Part shown: positions 2 to 58,280 of the stretch, piece by piece
How the letters are laid out: each line of letters begins with the position of its first letter
Position numbering within the stretch: the stretch's first letter is position 1
Source of the DNA: Gammaproteobacteria bacterium
Lineage (GTDB): Bacteria; Pseudomonadota; Gammaproteobacteria; Pseudomonadales; Azotimanducaceae
Length of the DNA: 58,280 nucleotides
Direction of reading: 5' to 3'
Assembly: GCA_026706385.1 (NCBI GenBank)
Contig: JAPOYV010000117.1
Location: 1-58,280 of the forward strand
Translations under genes and position numbers: made by a program
The notes under the pieces: model-generated
Databases searched by the model: none
Seen by the model: the letters and a program-made list of their open reading frames with translations, nothing else
What the model was told of the DNA's origin: nothing

Positions 2-94
2 GGGCGGCTGACCGAACTCAGGTGGGTCTGGTTCGGAACCGTCGAGGCGCCGCGGGACGATGTCCCGGGCCTCCGCTGGGAGGCTGCGCCGTAG
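2..94 (+). CDS. 3' end of a leucine-rich-repeat protein (partial, paralogue of the next gene)
   Basis: Only the last 30 codons are inside the window; the reading frame is open from the left edge and stops at TAG 92-94. The peptide (GRLTELRWVWFG... then VPGLRW) is nearly identical to the last 25 residues of the large sulfatase-LRR protein ending at 5015, and the DNA of 2-76 matches about 4939-5012. It runs six codons past the point where that gene stops, because the TAG there is TGG here. It is therefore the tail of a tandem paralogue whose body lies to the left. Function of the missing part cannot be seen. Confidence 0.75.
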   Translation, partial: GRLTELRWVWFGTVEAPRDDVPGLRWEAAP

Positions 95-182
95 AAGACG
101 GCGTGGGTGCCTAGCCGAAGTGGTGAGCGTAAAGCGAACCCCGGGCCAATCAGTTGCGAAGCAACTGCGGACCCGCCGATCT

Positions 183-414
183 CCAGGGAAGGCCCGGCTC
201 GAACGCGACTTTTGCGCGGCTGGTCAAGCGGAACGCTCGCGGTGGCGGCGCGGCCGTCCGCCGGGGCCGGCACGTGCGGCAGCACAAATGCGCACGTGGG
301 GTCGGCGGCGGTTCGCGGCTGCGCTGGCGGTGTTGGCGGCGTCGATGGGTGGAACCGCGGCGGCCGCGGCGCCGGACTCGGCACCGCGGCCCAACATCGT
401 GGTGTTCCTTTCCG
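183..414 (+). repeat. Direct repeat copy A: head of the sulfatase gene
   Basis: This segment covers the upstream region, start codon, signal peptide and first sulfatase residues. It is repeated with small indels at 5163-5373. Similarity begins at the GGGAAGGCCCGGCTCG stretch and ends after the codons for NIVVFLS. Together with the repeated gene tail at 2-94 it marks a tandem duplication. Confidence 0.85.
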
Positions 415-3400
415 ACGACATGGGCTGGGGACAGCCGGGCTTCAACGGCGGAACGGAGGTGGGGACGCCCAGCCTGGACCGGATCGCGAACGAGGGGGTC
501 AAGCTCACCCAGTTCTACGTGGTGCCTTCCTGCTGGCCGAGCCGGGCCTCCCTGATGTCCGGCCGCCATCACTGGAAGACGGGTGGAAAGGACCAGCGCT
601 CCACCGGCGACACCACCATGGGCATGCTGCCCGACGAGCGAACGATCGCCGAAGCGTTGCGCGACGCCGGCTACGCAACCTGGATGGTCGGCAAGTGGCA
701 TCTGGGCCAGTGGGAGTCCGAGCACCTCCCGCTGCAGCGCGGATTCGACCATCACTACGGGTTCTACTCCGGGACAACCGGCTACTACACCCACAGGGTC
801 CGCAACAAGCTGTCCTGGCACCGCAACGGGCGTCCCGTCGTCGAGCTCGGCTACACGACGTTCCTCATGGCCGAGGAAGCCGTGCAGTTGATCGAGCGTC
901 ACGACGGCAGCAACCCGTTCTTCCTCTACGTCGCGTTCAACGCCCCGCACCTCCCGAGGGGCGTGCCTCCGGAGTACAAGGCACGCTACGCCCATCTTCC
1001 CAATGCCGATCAGCGCGGCCAGGTCAAGGCCATGGACGATGCGATCGGCTGGGTCCTCGACGCCCTCGACCGGAGGGACATGTTCGACGACACCCTGGTC
1101 GTGTTCTTCAACGACAACGGAGGGAGACAGCGGGCGGGATGGAATCGGCCCTACAGGGGCGAGAAGGGAGACCTCCTTGAAGGCGGCATCCGCGTTCCCG
1201 CCGTCATGCGTTGGCCCGGCCACATTCCCGCGGGTTCCGAAACCGACGCGCTGCTCCACGTGGTGGACCTTTTCCCCACTTTGGCCGGCTTGGCCGGAGC
1301 GGAAGCGGAGACGGTGCTGCCACTCGACGGTCTCGATGCCTGGCAGGCGATTTCCGCGGGAGCGGCGAGTCCGCGCGAGGAAGTGGCGCATTCGCTCGAT
1401 GTGATCCGGGTCGGCGACTGGAAGCTGATCGAAGAGGACGGGTTGCGCTGGTACGGTGGCAACTCCACGCTGAAGCTCTACAACATTGGCGAGGATCCCT
1501 ACGAGACCACGAACCTCGCCTCCAGCGAGCCGGCCAAGGTCGCCGAACTGCGAGGGCGCCTGGACTATCACCGGCAGTTTACCCGCGAGCAAGCTCCCGC
1601 CCGCCGGATTCCCGCTTCGGCCGTTGTCTACGGAAAGGAGGAGAACGCCGCCTACGGCGCTGCGGTCGAACGAGCGATCGCGGCGCTCGAGACGGGCAAC
1701 AAAGGACCGGTGCTCGAGCGGCTGGAGGCGGTCGACGACAGGGTCCGGCTGGACTTCGACGAACCGGTGGACGCGGACTTCGTGCCGCCGGCGAGCGCGT
1801 TCCGCGTGGTGGCGCCGCCCAGCTACGCCGCGGTCGAGGTCGCGGACGTCGAAGCGAACGGCACCGAGGTCGTGCTCACGCTGGCGTCGCCGCGCCGTCC
1901 CGGCACGACGGTCGGCATCACCTACGACGTGCCGGACAGCGGCGCGATTCGGAACGTTGGCGGCCTAGAGGCGGTGGGGATCACGTGGCGCACGGCCAGG
2001 GTGACGTCCGCCGACCCCGTCTGGCAGTCGACGGTGACGGTGGAGGCGCGGGACGGGTACCGGGGGTATTCGTCGATCGCCCACCCGGACCAGGGTGCCG
2101 TTGCCGATCACACATTCGACTACGGAGAGGGCGCGGCCTACCAGGTTCAGATCGTCCTGGCGTACTCCGGCGGCGTCGTGTTCCAGGTACGCAACCGCAG
2201 CGACGCGGTCTCCGACCTGGTGCTGGAATGGGTGGGTGAGACGCTGCCGCTGGCGGAGGCCAGGTGGGACCCGAGCTGGGACCGCTACACTTGGGACGAG
2301 GCGTGGCTTCAAGCCAATGCGCCGTCGCTGACTGCGTCGGCGCATGCGAGGACCCTGCGCGACGGCAGCACAGCCGCAGTCTGCCTGCGCTTTGCGGAGG
2401 GGGCGTGCCCGGAAACTTCCCCGGCGGACGGTTCCGGCACCGCGTCCGACGACGCCACGCTGTCGTCGCTGGCGCTGTCCGGCATCGACATCGGCACGTT
2501 CGCGCCGGGCACGGCAACCTACACGGCAGCGGTCGGGCACGACGTCTCGAGCACGCAGGTGACGGCGACGGCGAACCATGCGAGCGCGAACGTGACCATC
2601 ACGGACGCGGACGGCAGCACGACCGGCACGTCGCGCATGGTGGCGCTGGCCGAGGGATCGAACGCGATCACGGTCACGGTGACCGCCGAGGACGGCACGA
2701 CGACGGCGGTCTACACGGTGACGGTGACGCGGGCGGCGGCACCGGCGTCGCCGATCCTCTCCGTTGCCGACGCGCGGACGGTCGAGGGTGGGGACGCGGT
2801 GCTCTCCTTCGCCGTGCGCCTGTCTTTCACGGCGTCCACCGCGGTGACGGTGGAGTACGCCACCCGGGACGTCACGGCGACCGCGGGGGACGACTACACG
2901 GCGGCGTCCGGGACGCTCGCTCTCGCCGCGGGGGAGACTGCGGGGACGGTATCGGTTGCGGTGCTGGACGACGCCGAGGACGAGGACGACGAGACGCTGA
3001 CGCTGATCCTCTCGGATGCCGTCGGTGCGTCTGTCGAAGACGGCTCGGCGACGGGTACGGTGGTCGACGACGACCCTTCGGCCGACGCCACGCTGTCGTC
3101 GCTGGCGCTGTCCGGCATCGACATCGGCACGTTCGCGCCGGGCACGGCAACCTACACGGCAGCGGTCGGGCACGACGTCTCGAGCACGCAGGTGACGGCG
3201 ACGGCGAACCATGCGAGCGCGAACGTGACCATCACGGACGCGGACGGCAGCACGACCGGCACGTCGCGCACGGTGGCGCTGGCCGAGGGACTGAACGCGA
3301 TCACGGTCACGGTGACCGCCGAGGACGGCGTGACGACGGCGGTCTACACGGTGACGGTAACGCGCGAAGTGGCGGCGCCGGCAACGCCGCTGACGGCATC

Positions 3401-5015
3401 GTTCAGCTCGGCGCCGGCGTCGCACGACGGGTCGAAGGCGTTCAGGGTCCGCCTCAGCTTCAGCGCGGCGCTGCTGAAGGGCTCAGAGCTCCAGATCCGG
3501 CGGGCGCTGTGGGTGACCCGAGGCGCGGCGAAGACGATCCTGCAGGTGGAGAGCCGTCTGGACCTCTGGGAGGTGGAGATCAAACCCGCTGGGACCGACG
3601 CCGTGACGATGTCGCTGGCTTCAACGGGATCCTGCGGGGACAGGGCGGCGATCTGCACCGCCGACGGCCGCGCACTGTCGAACGAGCCGAGCGTCACGGT
3701 GGACGGGCCGCCGGATGCGGCGCTGACCGCGTCGTTCCAGTCGGTGCCGGCGGAGCACGACGGGTCGAGCACCTTCATCGTGCACCTGAAATTCTCCGAC
3801 GACATCACGACCAGCTATCGGCCCCTGCGCGACCAGGCGCTATCGGCGACGAACGGGACGGTCCGCCGGGCGCGCCGCATCGACCACCGGAACGATCTCT
3901 GGGAGGTCCACGTCGAGCCGTCGGGCAACGACGACGTGACGGTGACGCTGGACCCGGCCACGGACGACTGCACTGAGACCGGCTCGGTGTGCACATCCGA
4001 CGGCCGGGCGCTGTCGAACACGCCGAGCGTGACGGTGAACGGCCCGTCAACGGCGGCCGCCATCGTGAACGGACCTCTCGTGACGCTCAAGTGGGGGAGC
4101 CCGCGGGACGACTTCGGCTCGCCGTCCGGCACGGACTACGGGGTGCGCGTGAACGGCAGCGCCCGCGCCGTCGTGTCGGCGGAACTGGCCGGAACCACGG
4201 CGTGGCTCACGTTGGCATCCCCGGTCGCGCCCGGGGATTCGGTGACCGTGGCTTACCTGGGCTCCGCGATGCACCCGCTCGCGGACGCCACGGGGTTGGT
4301 GCGCTCGGGGCCGTGGGACGGACTCGCGGCGGAGAACCTCACCGGAACCGGGCGGTTCAGGGCGTCCGCGCCCATGGCCAACTCTCGGCCCGCCGACCCG
4401 CTCGCGGCTGCGGCCGAGGACACGTTGCGCCTGGACGCCTCCGGTCTCGGCCTGGCAGATCTGTGGGGCGTGGCGCGCTTGACGGCGCTCGAGCGCGTCG
4501 ACCTGTCCGACAACGCCGTGTCCGACCTGTCGCCGCTGGCCGGGCTCGCGAACCTCCGGGATCTCGACCTGTCGGGCAATCGCGTAACCGACCTGTGGCC
4601 GCTGTCCGGAATGTACGCCCTGGAGCGGCTGAACCTGTCGGCGAACGCCGTCGCCGACGTGCAGGCGCTGGCCGCGCTGCCGAACCTGAAGGTGGTGCTG
4701 CTGGACGGCAACGCCGTGTCGGACATCGGCCCGCTGACGCACCTGACGGCACTGGAGAACCTGGGCCTCGCCGGCAACCCGGTCGCCGACCTGACGGCGC
4801 TGCAGGACCTGCCGCGCCTCCGGCGGCTGGACCTGACCGGCAACCCGGCGGCCGACATGTCCCCGCTCGGCGACGTGGGCTCGCTGGTGTGGCTGACGCT
4901 CCCGGGACACCGCGTGGGCGCTTCGGCAGGGACGCTCGGGCGGCTGACCGAACTCAGGTGGGTCTGGTTCGGAACCGTCGAGGCGCCGCGGAACGATGTC
5001 CCGGGCCTCCGCTAG
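288..5015 (+). CDS. Secreted sulfatase fused to Calx-beta, cadherin-like and LRR domains
   Basis: A 1575-residue exported protein. ATG 288 is chosen because it begins a signal peptide (MRTWGRRRF, then an Ala/Val/Leu core ending near AAAAAPDS); the frame is open further upstream but reads as Arg-rich noise. Residues about 35-470 are an alkaline-phosphatase-fold sulfatase: NIVVFLSDDMGWG supplies metal Asp residues, CWPSR is the C-x-P-x-R motif whose Cys becomes formylglycine, and GKWHLG and NDNGG are further active-site motifs. Then come a beta-rich region, cadherin-like domain 1 (about 720-815), a Calx-beta domain (about 820-930), cadherin-like domain 2 (about 932-1026), two related modules with a Cys pair (about 1035-1255), a SwmB-like beta domain and five or so LRRs of the LxxLxxLxLxxN type (about 1380-1560). 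Substrate is unknown; the tail suggests surface or polysaccharide attachment. Usual sulfatases are about 450-550 residues, so the tail is about twice the enzyme. Confidence 0.88.
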   Translation: MRTWGRRRFAAALAVLAASMGGTAAAAAPDSAPRPNIVVFLSDDMGWGQPGFNGGTEVGTPSLDRIANEGVKLTQFYVVPSCWPSRASLMSGRHHWKTGGKDQRSTGDTTMGMLPDERTIAEALRDAGYATWMVGKWHLGQWESEHLPLQRGFDHHYGFYSGTTGYYTHRVRNKLSWHRNGRPVVELGYTTFLMAEEAVQLIERHDGSNPFFLYVAFNAPHLPRGVPPEYKARYAHLPNADQRGQVKAMDDAIGWVLDALDRRDMFDDTLVVFFNDNGGRQRAGWNRPYRGEKGDLLEGGIRVPAVMRWPGHIPAGSETDALLHVVDLFPTLAGLAGAEAETVLPLDGLDAWQAISAGAASPREEVAHSLDVIRVGDWKLIEEDGLRWYGGNSTLKLYNIGEDPYETTNLASSEPAKVAELRGRLDYHRQFTREQAPARRIPASAVVYGKEENAAYGAAVERAIAALETGNKGPVLERLEAVDDRVRLDFDEPVDADFVPPASAFRVVAPPSYAAVEVADVEANGTEVVLTLASPRRPGTTVGITYDVPDSGAIRNVGGLEAVGITWRTARVTSADPVWQSTVTVEARDGYRGYSSIAHPDQGAVADHTFDYGEGAAYQVQIVLAYSGGVVFQVRNRSDAVSDLVLEWVGETLPLAEARWDPSWDRYTWDEAWLQANAPSLTASAHARTLRDGSTAAVCLRFAEGACPETSPADGSGTASDDATLSSLALSGIDIGTFAPGTATYTAAVGHDVSSTQVTATANHASANVTITDADGSTTGTSRMVALAEGSNAITVTVTAEDGTTTAVYTVTVTRAAAPASPILSVADARTVEGGDAVLSFAVRLSFTASTAVTVEYATRDVTATAGDDYTAASGTLALAAGETAGTVSVAVLDDAEDEDDETLTLILSDAVGASVEDGSATGTVVDDDPSADATLSSLALSGIDIGTFAPGTATYTAAVGHDVSSTQVTATANHASANVTITDADGSTTGTSRTVALAEGLNAITVTVTAEDGVTTAVYTVTVTREVAAPATPLTASFSSAPASHDGSKAFRVRLSFSAALLKGSELQIRRALWVTRGAAKTILQVESRLDLWEVEIKPAGTDAVTMSLASTGSCGDRAAICTADGRALSNEPSVTVDGPPDAALTASFQSVPAEHDGSSTFIVHLKFSDDITTSYRPLRDQALSATNGTVRRARRIDHRNDLWEVHVEPSGNDDVTVTLDPATDDCTETGSVCTSDGRALSNTPSVTVNGPSTAAAIVNGPLVTLKWGSPRDDFGSPSGTDYGVRVNGSARAVVSAELAGTTAWLTLASPVAPGDSVTVAYLGSAMHPLADATGLVRSGPWDGLAAENLTGTGRFRASAPMANSRPADPLAAAAEDTLRLDASGLGLADLWGVARLTALERVDLSDNAVSDLSPLAGLANLRDLDLSGNRVTDLWPLSGMYALERLNLSANAVADVQALAALPNLKVVLLDGNAVSDIGPLTHLTALENLGLAGNPVADLTALQDLPRLRRLDLTGNPAADMSPLGDVGSLVWLTLPGHRVGASAGTLGRLTELRWVWFGTVEAPRNDVPGLR
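2451..2731 (+). repeat. Intragenic repeat copy 1 (cadherin-like domain)
   Basis: About 281 bp encoding the first cadherin-like beta-sandwich (DATLSSLALSG... to VYTVTVTR). It is almost identical at the DNA level to 3084-3364, a 633-bp offset, with only a handful of substitutions. That implies recent duplication or gene conversion; the Calx-beta domain sits between the copies. Confidence 0.9.
3084..3364 (+). repeat. Intragenic repeat copy 2 (cadherin-like domain)
   Basis: Second copy of the 281-bp unit at 2451-2731, in the same frame and 211 codons downstream. Differences include Met to Thr, Ser to Leu and Thr to Val codons. Recombination between the copies would cleanly delete one cadherin-like plus the Calx-beta domain. 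Confidence 0.9.
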
Positions 5016-50370: not shown

Positions 50371-51354
50371 ATGGCAGAGGCGGATGCGGCCAGGCCCATG
50401 ACCTTGGCCGAGTTGGCGATCTGGCTCGCGTCGCCCACGCGGGCCGAGGAACTGTGTGCCTTGGCCGGGACGCCCTGCATTTTCGTGGAGCTGGACGGGG
50501 CGCCTTGGCCTTCGATTGCCGGCAACCCCAATTGTCCGGTCGTGGCCATCACCGACCGCACGGACGTTCCGGACGTGGTTGACGTCGTGGTGGCGGACGC
50601 CGACGCGGGGATGCAGGTGGCGGAAGCGGTCCGGTCCAATCCAATCGCGGCCATGGTCCTGGTCCGGCTGCTCCGGCACAACCAAGGCGTCGGTGTCGGC
50701 GATCGCCTCTACGCCGAGTCCCTGGCGTACTCGGCCCTGCAACACGGGGCCGAGTTCAGGGCGTGGCTTCAGGCGCGAACTAGGCGCGAACCGCGCCCGG
50801 AACCCGACGTGCCGGCCGTTCTGCTGACGCGCGACGGGGACGAGTTGCGGATCACCCTCAACCGTCCGCACAAGCGCAACGCCTACTCGAGCGGCTTGCG
50901 CGACGCGCTTTGCGAAGCGTTGGCGTATGCCGTGGACGATCCGAGCGTCGCCCGGATCGTGCTCGACGGTGCCGGCGCATCGTTCAGTGCCGGCGGCGAC
51001 CTCGATGAATTCGGGGAGGCGACCGATGCGGGTGTCGCCCACGCGTCGCGCATGGCGCGCAGTGCCGCGGTGCTGATCGACCGGCTCCGGGACAAGGTCG
51101 AAGCCCGCGTGCACGGTGCGTGCATTGGCGCCGGCATCGAGTTGCCGGCGTTCGCGGGGCGGGTCATGGCCCGCGACGACGCCTTCTTCCAGCTTCCGGA
51201 AGTGGGCATGGGACTGATTCCCGGAGCCGGCGGTACGGCAAGCATCCTGCCGAGGATCGGTCGGCGGCGGCTGGCGTTGATGGCCCTGACCGGAATGCGC
51301 GTGGACGCATCCACGGCGTTGGAATGGGGTCTGGTGGATGCCATCGAGAATTGA
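50371..51354 (+). CDS. Enoyl-CoA hydratase/isomerase with N-terminal extension
   Basis: 327 residues. Residues about 150-320 are a crotonase fold: RITLNRPHKRNAYSSGLRDAL, GASFSAGGDLDEFG (oxyanion site), HGACIGAGIELPAFAG and GMGLIPGAGGTASILPR. The 145-residue N-terminal part contains LAYSALQHGAEFRAWLQAR, which resembles the helix late in other crotonases, so it may be a degenerate copy. Role: hydration or isomerisation of an acyl-CoA. Its stop overlaps the GNAT gene by 17 bp. Confidence 0.87.
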   Translation: MAEADAARPMTLAELAIWLASPTRAEELCALAGTPCIFVELDGAPWPSIAGNPNCPVVAITDRTDVPDVVDVVVADADAGMQVAEAVRSNPIAAMVLVRLLRHNQGVGVGDRLYAESLAYSALQHGAEFRAWLQARTRREPRPEPDVPAVLLTRDGDELRITLNRPHKRNAYSSGLRDALCEALAYAVDDPSVARIVLDGAGASFSAGGDLDEFGEATDAGVAHASRMARSAAVLIDRLRDKVEARVHGACIGAGIELPAFAGRVMARDDAFFQLPEVGMGLIPGAGGTASILPRIGRRRLALMALTGMRVDASTALEWGLVDAIEN

Positions 51355-51970
51355 CCGGCGCGGGACGTTCGCCGGTCATGACGTCCACTTGGCGACACCG
51401 CGTCTGAAGCTACGCCCGTTCGAGGAGACGGATCTCGACAGCGCCTTGGTGTACTACCAAGACCGCGAGTTTCTCGAGGGCATGGAAGGCGAGCCGCCCT
51501 CGCTACCCGTGACGCGCGATTACCTCGAGCGCTCGGCGCGCGCGATGACCGCGAACGGCTTCTACTTCGCGATCGTGCAACGCCCGACCGGCCGAACGAT
51601 CGGGGAGGTATGCCTGCAGTGGATGAACCTGGAGCGCGGCAAGGTGCCGGGGCAGAAGGTCGTGCGGCTACCCATCGGCATATGGGACAAGGCGCTGTGG
51701 GGGCGCGGCTATGCGAAGGAGGTGGTGGAGCGCCTGATGGCGCACGCGTTCGAGAGCGAGCACGTCGACCGCTTCTGCGCCATGGATGTGGACACGACGA
51801 ATGTCCGCTCACAGCGCCTTTGGCAAGCGTGCGGACTGCGTCAAGCCCGCGTCACCGGCCGCAAGATCGACTTCGAACTCGATCGGGCGGGCTACGCGGC
51901 GCTGACCGGGTGTTCGAAGCAGAGCTCGCGACCATCGGGGTCGCGCACCGACAGTTGCCGCATGCCGTAG
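51338..51970 (+). CDS. GNAT family N-acetyltransferase (RimJ-like)
   Basis: 210 residues. RLKLRPFEETDLDSAL at the start and GIWDKALWGRGYAKEVVERLM with the acetyl-CoA pyrophosphate loop, then NVRSQRLWQACGLRQA, are the GNAT motifs. Acceptor unknown. It begins inside the crotonase gene and its last 26 codons (from 51892) are antisense to the acyl-CoA ligase gene, so the C-terminal tail is probably a read-through extension. Confidence 0.83.
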   Translation: MPSRIDRRGTFAGHDVHLATPRLKLRPFEETDLDSALVYYQDREFLEGMEGEPPSLPVTRDYLERSARAMTANGFYFAIVQRPTGRTIGEVCLQWMNLERGKVPGQKVVRLPIGIWDKALWGRGYAKEVVERLMAHAFESEHVDRFCAMDVDTTNVRSQRLWQACGLRQARVTGRKIDFELDRAGYAALTGCSKQSSRPSGSRTDSCRMP

Positions 51971-53790
51971 AACGCGACGGTCGGCGGTGGCGCGTCCACG
52001 CCGCGGCCGGTGAATTGCTCGTGGAGGTCGTCGACGTTCTCGCAGAGGAAGAACAAGGCGATGTCGCCGTGGCCGTTGCGCAAGCCGCCGAGATCGTCCG
52101 GTTCCGCCGACTGCAGCATGATCGTCGCCCCCTCCATCTCGAGCTGGCACCAGTTCAACCGACCATCGGCATCCCAGCGGTTGGTCAGCGTGAAGCCGAG
52201 CTGGTCGCAGTAGAAGGCGCGCGAGCGTTCGATGTCGGCGACGTAGAGCAGCGGCATGGCCGCGCGCACGTTCTGCGCGGGCGCCGTCAGCTTCGCCTTG
52301 ACGACGCGGCGGAGCAGCTTGCCGGTTTCGTTGTAAGGCAGTTCGGGCCAGAAGACGATGCGCTCCGGAACCCGCGAGGAGCGCATGTGGCCGCGCACCC
52401 AGTCCTGAAGGTCGGCGATCAGATCGTCGTTGGCGGGCGTGTCGCTGTTGACGACGACCGCGCCGGCCACGGCCTCGCCCCACTCTTCGCTGGGCACGCC
52501 GACGATGGCGGCGTCGCGAACCGCGTCGTGCGCAAGCAGCACGTCCTCGATCTCGCCCGGCGACATGTTCTCGCCGCCGCGCACGATGACGTCGTCGGCG
52601 CGGCCGTCGAGGAACAGGTAGCCCTCCGCGTCCAGGAAGCCGGCGTCGCGGGTGGGGAACCAGCCTTCGGTGTCGACGGTGCTGCCGCGGTCTTCGTACT
52701 CGCCGGAGACCTGTTCGCCGCGGACGTAGATCTCGCCGCGTTGGTCGGTGCCCAAGGCGTTGCCGTCTTCGTCGCGGATTTCGAGCTCGATCCCGGGTAA
52801 GGGAATTCCGACGGAGACCAGGCGCCGGCGAACCGCTTCGTCCTCGCTGGTCGCGGCGGCCCGGTGTTCGTCGGGCCCAAGCACGGTAATCGTCGAACTC
52901 GTCTCGGTGAGCCCGTAGGCGTTGGTGAAGTCCGTGTCCGGGAACAGCGCCATGGCCTTCTCGATCACTGAGAGGGGCATCTTGCCGCCGCCGTAGGACA
53001 GCGATTGCAGGTGCGACATGCCGGCGGTTTTTTCTCCCTCCAGCGCGTCGACGATCCTCGACAGCATGGTCGGCACCACGAAGGCCGTGGTGATGTGCTC
53101 GTGGCGGGCCGTCTCGATCCAGGCATCGGCGCTGAAGTTGGCGAGTTGGACGACCCGACGCCCTGCGTAGACGGAACTCAAGGTCGAGGCGATGCCGGCA
53201 ACGTGGTAGGGCGGTACGCATACGAGCGCCGCCTCGTCCTCGGCGGCGGACATGAACTCCACCGAACTCACGATGTACGAGACCAAGTGCTTATGGCGCA
53301 GCACCGCGGCCTTGGGAATGCCCGTCGTGCCACTGGTGAAGAGCAGCACGCCGATGTCCTCGGGATCCATGGAGCGTTGCTCGGCATGGCCGTCGCCGCC
53401 TCGTGCCACACCCAGGAAGGTCCCGCGCGAGCGTGGGTCGACACCGTCGCGATCTTGGAAATGGGGGAGTCGCTCGTCGTCCGTCACCAGGTAGGCGGGC
53501 GTCACGCGGGCGAGAAGCGCGTCGATCTCCTCACCCGTCAGGCGGTAGTTGATCGGTACGTAGGGGACGCCGGCCCAGCCGCTTGCGAACAGCGCGACGG
53601 GAACGGCAATATTGCTGACATCGAGCATGGCGACCCGGCTCGCGCCGGACTCGCGGATGTCGTGGGCGGCCGCGCCGGCGGCGTCGTAGAGTTCCTGGTA
53701 GGTGATCGAGCCGCCGTCTGCGGGGTCGGTGAACGCCACGCGATCGCCGAAGCCGGACATCGCCATTTCCAGCAGCATCATGGTGTTCAC
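51892..53790 (-). CDS. Acyl-CoA synthetase fused to a VOC (glyoxalase-like) domain
   Basis: 632 residues. Residues 1-500 are an AMP-forming ligase: LLFTSGTTGIPKAA (P-loop), AYGLTETSST, DGRADDVIVRGGENMSPGEIE and PYNETGKLLRR with the catalytic Lys. The last 120 residues (AAMPLLYVADIERSRAFYCDQLGF ... VRDPDGRELCFEHP) form a complete VOC domain. The combination suggests a product or cofactor interaction between the two. Acyl substrate unknown. The C-terminus is antisense to the end of the GNAT gene (79-bp overlap). Confidence 0.9.
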   Translation of the reverse strand: MNTMMLLEMAMSGFGDRVAFTDPADGGSITYQELYDAAGAAAHDIRESGASRVAMLDVSNIAVPVALFASGWAGVPYVPINYRLTGEEIDALLARVTPAYLVTDDERLPHFQDRDGVDPRSRGTFLGVARGGDGHAEQRSMDPEDIGVLLFTSGTTGIPKAAVLRHKHLVSYIVSSVEFMSAAEDEAALVCVPPYHVAGIASTLSSVYAGRRVVQLANFSADAWIETARHEHITTAFVVPTMLSRIVDALEGEKTAGMSHLQSLSYGGGKMPLSVIEKAMALFPDTDFTNAYGLTETSSTITVLGPDEHRAAATSEDEAVRRRLVSVGIPLPGIELEIRDEDGNALGTDQRGEIYVRGEQVSGEYEDRGSTVDTEGWFPTRDAGFLDAEGYLFLDGRADDVIVRGGENMSPGEIEDVLLAHDAVRDAAIVGVPSEEWGEAVAGAVVVNSDTPANDDLIADLQDWVRGHMRSSRVPERIVFWPELPYNETGKLLRRVVKAKLTAPAQNVRAAMPLLYVADIERSRAFYCDQLGFTLTNRWDADGRLNWCQLEMEGATIMLQSAEPDDLGGLRNGHGDIALFFLCENVDDLHEQFTGRGVDAPPPTVAFYGMRQLSVRDPDGRELCFEHPVSAA

Positions 53791-53886: not shown

Positions 53887-54189
53887 TCAGTCGGTCTTGG
53901 GGAGCTTCTTGGCGTCTTTGACGTTGAGGGCGGCACCACCGACGCTTAAGGAACCTTCGCCTGCCTTCACGCAGAGCACTTCGAGGGAACCGTCCTCGTT
54001 GACGTAGCGCTTGCCGATCGCCGTGCCGCCAGCATGGTCGGCGTCGACCGCGCCGCCGTTGGATTCCCCGTCGCCCATCGCTGTACCGCCGCAGCACAGA
54101 TCCACGTCGCCGTCGGGTGCCGCGATGACCATGATCTCCGTTGCGCAGACCGCGCTCTTCAAGCGCTTGCCGGCTGACAAGGTCGTCAT
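53887..54189 (-). CDS. Small conserved hypothetical protein, 100 aa
   Basis: ATG 54189 follows GGGGGAG. The protein has a CATEIMVIAAPDGDVDLCCGG segment, GKRYVNEDGSLEVLCVKAGEGSL and a KKLPKTD end. This small family recurs near acyl-CoA ligases in Proteobacteria and Actinobacteria; function unknown. Four Cys near the N-terminal half could bind metal. It precedes the ligase-VOC gene on the same strand with 96 bp between, and a TACAAT -10-like element lies upstream (54231-54236). Confidence 0.65.
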   Translation of the reverse strand: MTTLSAGKRLKSAVCATEIMVIAAPDGDVDLCCGGTAMGDGESNGGAVDADHAGGTAIGKRYVNEDGSLEVLCVKAGEGSLSVGGAALNVKDAKKLPKTD

Positions 54190-54276: not shown

Positions 54277-55143
54277 ATGAGTGGTCAGCCCGTCTCCTAC
54301 ATGGCCCGAACCCGGCGTTACTACGAAGCGCAGGGGTTCGAGAGCGCCTATGTGTGGGCGCACTTCGAGGACGTCCCGTTCACGCCGCTTGCCAAGCCGC
54401 TCGCGGAGTCGAAGCTGGCCGTGGTGAGTACGTCGGCGCTCTACGACCGGGAAGCCACGGATCCGCGCTACGTCGCCTCCGGTTCGATGCTTGAGCCTCC
54501 GGCGCGGCTTTACGCCAACGATCTCGCGTGGGCCAAGAACGTGACCCACATGGACGACCGTGGCAGCTACTTCCCCGTGGAGCCGTTGAAGGCCATGGTG
54601 GACGATGGCCGCTTGGGCGCTTTGAGCGAGCGGTTCCATTGCGCACCGACCGAATACAGCCAGCGGCGCACGCGGGACGGCGACGCGCCGGAGATCCTCC
54701 AACGCCTCGGGGAGGATGGTGCCGACATCGCGCTGCTCGTGCCGTTGTGACCGGTGTGCCATCAGACCGTGAGTCTGATCGCCCGCCACTTGGAGGCCAA
54801 CGGCGTTCCCACCGTCATTCTGGGGTCCGCCTTGGACGTGGTCGAGCACTGTGGTGTGCCGCGATTCGCATTTGTCGACTTCCCCCTCGGCAATCCTTGC
54901 GGCAAGCCCTGGGATCGGCCGATGCAGACTGCGATCGTGACCGCTGCGGTCGGGCTCTTCGACAGCGCGCCCGCGCCCCGAACGACGCTACGCCTGCCGC
55001 AGCGCTGGGGCGAAGACGAAGGCTGGCGGGACGATTACTTGGCGGTGCGCGAGGATGACTTGGTAGCGCTCCGACGCAAGGGCGAGGAACGCCGCGCGCT
55101 GCGGGCGCAATTGCGCACGGAAGGGCGCGTCCGCCAAGGTTAG
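54277..55143 (+). CDS. Selenoprotein of the GrdB-like reductase family (in-frame TGA as Sec)
   Basis: 288 residues if TGA 54748-54750 is read as Sec158. Both parts are in the same frame and both belong to one family: before, AHFEDVPFTPLAKPLAESKLAVVSTSALY and YFPVEPLKAMVDDGRLG; after, PVCHQTVSLIARHLEANGVPTV, VEHCGVPRFAFVDFPLGNPCGKPWDR. This is the architecture of the glycine/sarcosine/betaine reductase selenoprotein B-related proteins found in Proteobacteria, whose redox motif reads C-P-V-C; here it is U-P-V-C. Sec158 and Cys161 would form a selenenylsulfide. A hairpin suited to SelB lies at 54761-54779. A TATGAT element at 54262-54267 sits very close to ATG 54277, so the message may be nearly leaderless. 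Substrate unknown. Confidence 0.82.
54761..54779 (+). promoter_or_regulatory. Putative bacterial SECIS element
   Basis: ATCAGAC-CGTGA-GTCTGAT: a perfect 7-bp stem with a 5-nt loop whose second base is G followed by U. The loop starts 17 nt after the TGA, inside the usual spacing for bacterial SECIS hairpins read by SelB. It lies in coding sequence, as bacterial SECIS elements do. Confidence 0.72.
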
Positions 55144-57614: not shown

Positions 57615-58280
57615 TCAGTCCCAACTCAACGCTCCCCCCGTCTGATACTCGGTCACCCGCGTCTCGAAGAAGTTCTTCTCCTTCTTCAGGTCCATGATCT
57701 CGGACATCCACGGGAACGGGTTCTTGGCGCTTGGGAACTGCTCGGGCAGGCCGATCTGGGCCAGCCGCCGGTTGGCGATGAACTGGAGGTATTCCGCCAT
57801 CGTGTTGGCGTTCATGCCGAGCACGCCGCGCGGCATGGTGTCGCGCGCGTAGCGGGTCTCGAGTTCCGCCCCTTCGAGGATCATCCGCGTGGCGAGAGCG
57901 CGCATGTCGTCGTCCCACAGGCGCGCGTTCTCCAGCTTGATCTGGTTGATGACGTCGATGCCGAAGTTCACGTGCATGGACTCGTCGCGCAGGATGTACT
58001 GGAACTGCTCGGAGGTACCCGTCATCTTGTTGCGGCGTCCCATGGAGAGGATCTGCGTGAAGCCGCAGTAGAAGAAGATGCCTTCCATGACGCAGTAGTA
58101 GGCGATCAGGTTCTTGAGCAGCGCCTTGTCCGCCTCAACGGTACCGGTCTGGAAGGTGGGGTCGGCGAGTTCGCGCGTGTACTTGAGCGCCCAGGATGCC
58201 TTGTGGGCGACCGAGGGGATCTCGTGGTACATGTTGAAGATCTCGCCCTCGTCCATGCCCAGCGACTCGATGCAGTACTG
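57615..58280 (-). CDS. nrdB: Ribonucleotide reductase class I, beta subunit (5' end outside window)
   Basis: The C-terminal 221 residues; the frame is open to the right edge. [16 protein letters not shown] and [15 protein letters not shown] carry the Glu and Glu-x-x-His iron ligands, and the end ([18 protein letters not shown]) is the tail that docks on NrdA. It supplies the radical for deoxynucleotide synthesis. The radical Tyr lies in the missing part. Confidence 0.95.

What the first reader, a model, noticed from the sequence alone, without database searches (positions are those of the whole stretch)
54277..55143. Probable selenoprotein: UGA replaces the first Cys of a CPVC-type motif in a GrdB-like reductase
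Seen: one frame is homologous to a single family on both sides of TGA 54748-54750, with no shift and no other stop, and the next residues are PVCHQ. Known: related proteobacterial proteins carry Cys-Pro-Val-Cys at this point; the anaerobic GrdB proteins are selenoproteins. Inference: Sec158-Cys161 forms a redox motif in an aerobic-type bacterium, beside an acyl-CoA ligase-VOC gene. The TGA is the usual Cys-to-Sec exchange and would be miscalled as two genes by automated annotation.
Basis: partly seen in the sequence, partly recalled or inferred. Interest (0 to 1): 0.9.

Follow-up and report, generated by a model that had tools for sequence, protein, structure and literature searches.

The report
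Real selenoprotein, PrdB-like, one of five
A gene that looks broken by a stop codon almost certainly makes a selenium-containing, redox-type protein related to clostridial D-proline reductase subunit PrdB, and its genome holds four more of the same kind without the usual partner subunit, so their job is still unknown.

Summary
TGA 54748-54750 is the only in-frame stop in a 288-codon gene (54277-55143). It is very probably selenocysteine (Sec158, motif U-P-V-C).

Evidence:
- The genome has tRNA-Sec (UCA), SelA, SelB and SelD.
- The TGA column is TGA in 18 and Cys in 62 of 80 homologous loci.
- Both halves are under purifying selection.
- A hairpin at a fixed distance after the TGA has all five core pairs in 24 of 24 distinct TGA sequences first examined (39 of 44 in the larger set), with compensatory changes; 4 of 54 distinct Cys homologues have it.

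The nearest characterised relative is D-proline reductase PrdB, not GrdB. It is not PrdB proper: 77 bits against a 300-bit cut-off, and the PrdA/GrdE-type partner was found in none of 19 Sec genomes.

The window gene is one of five PrdB-like genes in this genome, all with TGA in the same column; three UGSC-family genes also carry TGA. The tree, read with PrdB as outgroup, favours Sec as ancestral with three replacements by Cys.

PrdB-type UxxC selenoproteins have been reported from marine metagenomes since 2005, so this is a new member of a known kind. Its reaction is unknown; my best guess is a stand-alone Sec/Cys reductase.

The parts
54277..55143 (+). PrdB-like selenoprotein gene, 288 codons plus TAG stop; ATG start at 54277
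   Evidence: start agrees with homologues
54748..54750 (+). in-frame TGA read as selenocysteine (Sec158)
   Evidence: column TGA in 18 and Cys in 62 of 80 loci
54757..54759 (+). codon TGC for Cys161 of the U-P-V-C motif
   Evidence: invariant in the 42-sequence alignment
54753..54787 (+). SECIS-like hairpin: upper stem 54761-54767 with 54773-54779, loop 54768-54772 (CGUGA), lower pairs reaching to 54753 and 54787
51892..53790 (-). neighbour: acyl-CoA ligase (AMP-binding) fused to a VOC/glyoxalase domain
   Evidence: same gene cluster near 8 of 19 TGA loci, the window included
53887..54189 (-). neighbour: 100-aa protein without a Pfam family, found beside the ligase-VOC gene in the same 8 loci
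   Evidence: cluster c20

Best explanation
The gene encodes a selenoprotein of the PrdB/GrdB superfamily. During translation, SelB with tRNA-Sec(UCA) reads UGA 54748-54750 as selenocysteine because a hairpin starts right after it (shown: the genes and the conserved structure; not shown: insertion itself). Sec158 sits between a beta strand (151-155) and a helix (159-174), with Cys161 in the first turn of that helix (predicted model). Inferred mechanism: Sec attacks an electrophilic substrate (a disulfide-like or oxidised group, or an alpha-substituted carbonyl carbon as in PrdB and GrdB); Cys161 resolves the intermediate as a Se-S bridge; a thioredoxin-like donor reduces it again. Unlike PrdB it works without a PrdA-type partner. 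A role in small-molecule or acyl-CoA catabolism is a weak guess from neighbours. The confidence given is for 'translated as a Sec protein with a Sec/Cys redox-type site', not for a substrate.
For: tRNA-Sec 68.8 bits, anticodon TCA; SelB 374 bits and SelA 537 bits on the same contig, SelD 250 bits. Column TGA 18 of 80, Cys 62 of 80; 29 of 29 TGA-bearing matches in the order at the same column. Hairpin with all five core pairs in 24 of 24 distinct TGA sequences versus 4 of 54 distinct Cys sequences, Fisher p 2.6e-16, not corrected for kinship; 39 of 44 in the larger TGA set against a per-pair shuffle maximum of 19 and a whole-arm-swap maximum of 23 in 2000 each. SelB over cut-off in 16 of 18 TGA genomes and 8 of 32 Cys genomes examined, two of the 8 partial. 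Two clostridial PrdB genes have TGA at the aligned position. No PF09338 (PrdA/GrdE) in 19 of 19 Sec genomes, with the positive control record ringing. Purifying selection on both sides.
Against: No protein or selenium measurement. Two of 18 TGA genomes (L032, L033) show no SelB over cut-off. Of 7 TGA genomes searched for tRNA-Sec, L033's and L031's do not reach the cut-off and L035's only just does (48.2 bits against 47); incomplete assemblies may explain this but that was not tested. Overall folding energy after the TGA is not lower than in synonymous recodings for most TGA sequences (mean z -0.46 for 30 TGA, -0.25 for 62 Cys; z below -1.5 in 4 of 30 and 3 of 62; the window itself z -2.40), and the 61-base fold of the window has z -1.25, so the case rests on the specific pairs. 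The two clostridial PrdB sequences lack the hairpin at this offset. Neighbours differ between the five paralogues and do not name a substrate.
Confidence: 0.95

Rival explanations
1. It is a true D-proline reductase subunit PrdB, used for Stickland-type reduction of D-proline.
For: Best family model is TIGR04483; profile match over 212 columns to Terrisporobacter PrdB with the Sec columns aligned.
Against: 77 bits against a cut-off of 300; no PrdA-type partner in 19 of 19 Sec genomes with a working control; motif U-P-V-C instead of U-G-T-C; no prd genes among the neighbours annotated.
Confidence: 0.03
2. A sub-reading of the best explanation: a stand-alone thiol/selenol oxidoreductase (disulfide or peroxide reduction) rather than a carbon-heteroatom reductase.
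For: U-P-V-C resembles CXXC redox motifs; positions 158 (Sec or Cys), 159 and 161 are invariant in 42 sequences; no constant partner gene.
Against: The PDB fold search lists no thioredoxin-type match among the 50 shown and nothing at E 0.001 or better; other invariant residues (D94, P100, E173, R196, L204, G205, G209, Q217) suggest a substrate pocket.
Confidence: 0.35
3. Pseudogene or sequencing error: TGA is a stop and the two halves are decaying or separate genes.
For: A TGA in frame is formally a stop; GTG 54754 could start the downstream half.
Against: Same TGA in separate assemblies, purifying selection on both halves, conserved hairpin, Sec machinery present.
Confidence: 0.02
4. UGA is reassigned genome-wide or read through as Trp or Cys.
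For: None beyond an open frame.
Against: TGA ends three of seven window reading frames checked (53887-54189, 57615-58256, 50371-51354) and is in frame only in this gene; tRNA-Sec and SelB are present.
Confidence: 0.01

Closest known systems
D-proline reductase subunit PrdB (TIGR04483), e.g. Terrisporobacter and Peptoclostridium
   Same: Homologous over about 210 residues, Sec encoded by TGA in the same column, UxxC motif.
   Different: UPVC versus UGTC, about 50 residues longer, 77 bits versus cut-off 300, no PrdA-type partner in the genome.
GrdB / selenoprotein B of glycine, sarcosine and betaine reductase (PF07355, TIGR01918)
   Same: Aligned to its C-terminal part including the UxxC region.
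   Different: Lacks the first half of GrdB; Pfam and TIGR cut-offs not met; no GrdE-type partner.
Marine metagenome 'PrdB' selenoproteins (UxxC, pfam07355), PMC1088965 and PMC2398784
   Same: UxxC Sec motif, marine setting, many copies: 42 in Sargasso data and 235 in GOS (passages and tables seen).
   Different: Their sequences were not compared here, so identity with this family is likely but untested; the passages I saw do not mention a missing PrdA or several paralogues in one genome.
NCBI 'glycine/sarcosine/betaine reductase selenoprotein B family protein' of Roseomonas and Haematobacter plasmids
   Same: 45.9% and 44.2% identical over 88% and 87% of the window protein.
   Different: Annotated as uninterrupted genes, so presumably Cys at the column (not checked); the name implies a reaction that is not shown.
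UGSC-family selenoproteins (NF041046)
   Same: Very weak similarity of two members of our family (E 0.16 and 0.056); the same genome has three with TGA.
   Different: Half the length, motif UGSC, no match listed for the window protein itself.

Membership tests
bacterial selenoproteins | in-frame TGA at a column that is Cys in homologues | tested here: met
   18 TGA and 62 Cys of 80 loci
bacterial selenoproteins | Sec machinery (tRNA-Sec, SelA, SelB, SelD) in the genome | tested here: met
bacterial selenoproteins | SECIS-like hairpin just after the UGA with G among the first two loop bases (rule recalled, not from a call) | tested here: met
   every loop listed has G at position 1 or 2
bacterial selenoproteins | selenium in the purified protein | not testable with these tools
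   needs 75Se labelling or mass spectrometry
PrdB (TIGR04483) | score above the equivalog cut-off of 300 bits | tested here: not met
   77.4 bits
PrdB (TIGR04483) | PrdA proprotein (PF09338) in the genome | tested here: not met
   0 of 19 Sec genomes; control plasmid record positive
PrdB (TIGR04483) | Sec in the homologous column of a UxxC motif | tested here: met
GrdB (PF07355 / TIGR01918) | family cut-off score | tested here: not met
   12.6 bits against 22; 24.1 against 65.45
GrdB (PF07355 / TIGR01918) | GrdE-type partner (PF09338) | tested here: not met
GrdB (PF07355 / TIGR01918) | GrdA selenoprotein partner | not tested
   no search with PF04723 was made

The most novel reading that the evidence does not exclude
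A superfamily of stand-alone, PrdA-independent Sec enzymes has expanded in this lineage: at least eight genes in one genome, five PrdB-like (two architectures, about 290-300 and 380-440 aa) and three UGSC. They would carry out a selenium-dependent reductive step on different small molecules, a chemistry so far assigned to anaerobic Stickland reductases.
Probability: 0.35. Interest if true: 0.7.

Novelty: new member of a known kind. Interest (0 to 1): 0.5.

Why it matters
PrdB-type UxxC selenoproteins are among the most abundant selenoprotein families in GOS ocean data (PMC2398784, passages), yet they carry the name of an anaerobic amino-acid reductase. The data here indicate that the name is probably wrong for this branch, because the catalytic partner is missing. 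They also give assembled genomes, five paralogues with SECIS-like hairpins and natural Cys homologues in cultured Bradyrhizobium, so the function can be tested. Automated annotation may cut such genes in two or name them by the wrong reaction (inference; the annotation of these assemblies was not seen).

Tried and rejected
True PrdB and true GrdB membership were tested and rejected. alone could not show absence of the partner because no control rang; one search repeated it with a positive control. Pseudogene and code reassignment were rejected. Folding energy as a general SECIS test led nowhere. Fold searches against PDB and viral models gave no match at E 0.001 or better, and sequence searches of PDB gave none or three with E 0.15 to 1.2. 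Gene neighbourhood was examined for a shared pathway: acyl-CoA genes (ligase-VOC, acyl-CoA dehydrogenase or CoA-transferase) lie within 5 kb of 15 of 19 TGA loci, but these are few clades with shared synteny, and the four own paralogues have other neighbours. For 35 of the 80 fetched loci (L064-L099, all Cys at the column) plus one more the neighbour table was not printed. A '1 TGA' flag alone is not proof: in G530 the column is Cys. An earlier count said 28 of 30 order matches carry TGA; the right count is 29 of 30, the exception being a partial match (query residues 4-121) that does not reach the column. The tRNA-Sec model also reaches its cut-off in three Cys-only Bradyrhizobium genomes (48.6-49.7 bits) and in 5 of 14 control genomes, so only high scores were trusted. 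Paper searches on a GrdB-like metagenome selenoprotein and on sponge-symbiont selenoproteins found no paper; I make no wider claim about what is in print.

Full report
Observation. The frame 54277-55143 (+) is open except for TGA 54748-54750 (codon 158), followed by PVCHQ, and ends in TAG. A scan of genome contigs confirmed 140 relatives and kept 80 loci. The column holds TGA in 18 of 80, TGC in 51 and TGT in 11; the 18 TGA loci show no further stop over the match. One Cys locus, L080, has a stop elsewhere. In the window's order, 30 matches were found in 18 of 293 genomes: 29 carry a TGA, and all 29 were checked to be at the UxxC column (own five, seven, seventeen; one of the seventeen, L143, is GrdB-type UGTC). 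The remaining one is a partial match that does not reach the column. In the class, 13 matches in 8 of 369 genomes, the own five included, have TGA at the column in 9 and Cys in 4.

Decoding. The genome (5.1 Mb, 98.11% complete, 2.65% contamination) has tRNA-Sec (68.8 bits; ARAGORN anticodon TCA), SelB (374 bits) and SelA (537 bits) together on contig C84, and SelD (250 bits), which is fused to a pyridine-nucleotide oxidoreductase domain. Of 50 genomes searched (18 TGA, 32 Cys, of 80 loci), SelB reaches its cut-off in 16 of 18 TGA and 8 of 32 Cys genomes, two of these 8 with partial matches. The two TGA genomes without it are those of L032 and L033. Ten genomes were searched for tRNA-Sec: of the 7 TGA genomes among them, L032's has a strong one (73.8 bits), L036's, L039's and L043's 68.2-70.4 bits, L035's just passes (48.2), and L031's and L033's do not reach the cut-off.

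Hairpin. After the TGA, a stem of five core pairs with a 5-base loop lies at a fixed distance. All five pairs form in 24 of 24 distinct TGA sequences (30 loci) and in 4 of 54 distinct Cys sequences (62 loci), although both encode nearly the same peptide. Codon 166 (Ser in the window) is AGT in 23 of 30 TGA loci and AGC in 48 of 62 Cys loci. The stem changes with compensation (CAGAC/GTCTG, CAGTC/GACTG, CGTAC/GTACG, GGCGC/GCGCC, CGTTG/CAACG). In the larger set 39 of 44 distinct TGA sequences have all five pairs; 2000 shuffles gave at most 19, and 2000 whole-arm swaps at most 23. The two clostridial PrdB sequences do not have the hairpin at this offset. Against this, general folding energy does not separate TGA from Cys sequences, and the sequences are related, so the Fisher p (2.6e-16) overstates independence.

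Selection. Against L020, dN/dS is about 0.13 before and 0.11 after the TGA; L021, L022 and L025 give dN well below dS on both sides.

Family. The best model is PrdB (TIGR04483, 77.4 bits, cut-off 300), then GrdB-type models, all below cut-off; Pfam GRDB is below cut-off. Two clostridial PrdB genes from plasmid records have TGA at the aligned position with UGTC, and profile comparison aligns 212 columns with probability 99.9. The partner family PF09338 (covers PrdA and, by recall, GrdE) is absent from 19 of 19 Sec genomes while the control record rings. So the protein is PrdB-related but not PrdB.

Paralogues. The genome carries five such genes, each with one TGA at the same column: window (UPVC), C96 (UPVC), C112 (UPLC), C84 (UPLC, about 5 kb from the tRNA-Sec gene) and C77 (UPNC). 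The last three have a C-terminal extension. Three UGSC-family genes with TGA are also present, two over the family cut-off.

Evolution. In a tree of 42 proteins with two clostridial PrdB sequences, at least three changes between Sec and Cys are needed. The tree was drawn with a midpoint root; read with PrdB as outgroup, PrdB, the long paralogues and the deepest short branches are all Sec, so three Sec-to-Cys replacements (the large Cys clade; L034/L038; L080) are the simplest reading. A 92-row tree also needs three changes. Long branches, the unusual make-up of the PrdB rows and uneven sampling make this moderate evidence. [quoted passage not shown]

Structure and mechanism. The model is confident (pLDDT 94.3, pTM 0.93; strand 151-155, helix 159-174) but has no PDB match at E 0.001 or better. 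Position 158 (Sec or Cys), Pro159 and Cys161 are invariant in the 42 sequences aligned, of 92 at hand. I infer a nucleophilic Sec with Cys161 resolving. GrdB-type chemistry has been proposed for C-F cleavage of monofluoroacetate in Synergistota (PMC10838667, abstract and passages), which suggests the chemistry can be adapted, but nothing here points to that substrate.

Context. Ligase-VOC, acyl-CoA dehydrogenase or CoA-transferase genes lie within 5 kb of 15 of 19 TGA loci, the window included, in few clades; L032, L033, L035 and L036 lack them. The own paralogues lie by a TonB receptor and a pterin dehydratase domain, by MFS and PhyH genes, by nucleoside permease, GDPD and amidase genes, and by PhyH, VOC and GST genes. 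The window also holds a ribonucleotide reductase small chain, which fits an oxygen-using life but does not prove it.

Literature. UxxC 'PrdB' selenoproteins: 42 in Sargasso Sea data (PMC1088965) and 235 in GOS with 110 Cys homologues (PMC2398784); [quoted passage not shown] Of these papers I saw passages and tables only. Hence a real selenoprotein, of a known kind, with an unassigned reaction.

Noticed in passing
L144, L145, L146 (G000 C84:69648-70079, C7:23031-23453, C65:14284-14718): Three UGSC-family genes, each with TGA at the UGSC position, in the same genome; with the five PrdB-like genes at least eight UGA-containing genes of these two families.
   Followed up: partly
L112:6410-8662 (G000 C3): SelD is fused to an N-terminal pyridine nucleotide-disulphide oxidoreductase domain and has no in-frame TGA.
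   Followed up: partly
L109, L110, L111, L124, L126, L139-L142: A longer PrdB-like subfamily (UP[LNAI]C motif, open frames of about 380-470 codons); nine of nine examined have TGA at the column.
   Followed up: partly
L080, L055, L083, L086: Four Cys homologues still have the five hairpin pairs, perhaps remains of a former SECIS.
   Followed up: no
L113:5977-6690: Peptoclostridium acidaminophilum plasmid prdB has no annotated prdA within about 6 kb (the plasmid gene table is incomplete).
   Followed up: no
L143 (G276 C1): A GrdB-type frame with UGTCTRCG in a member of the same order.
   Followed up: no
window 60-5012: 1651-aa protein with sulfatase, cadherin-like, Calx-beta and leucine-rich repeat domains.
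   Followed up: no
window 51892-53790: Acyl-CoA ligase fused to a VOC/glyoxalase domain; the gene cluster recurs near 8 of 19 TGA loci.
   Followed up: partly
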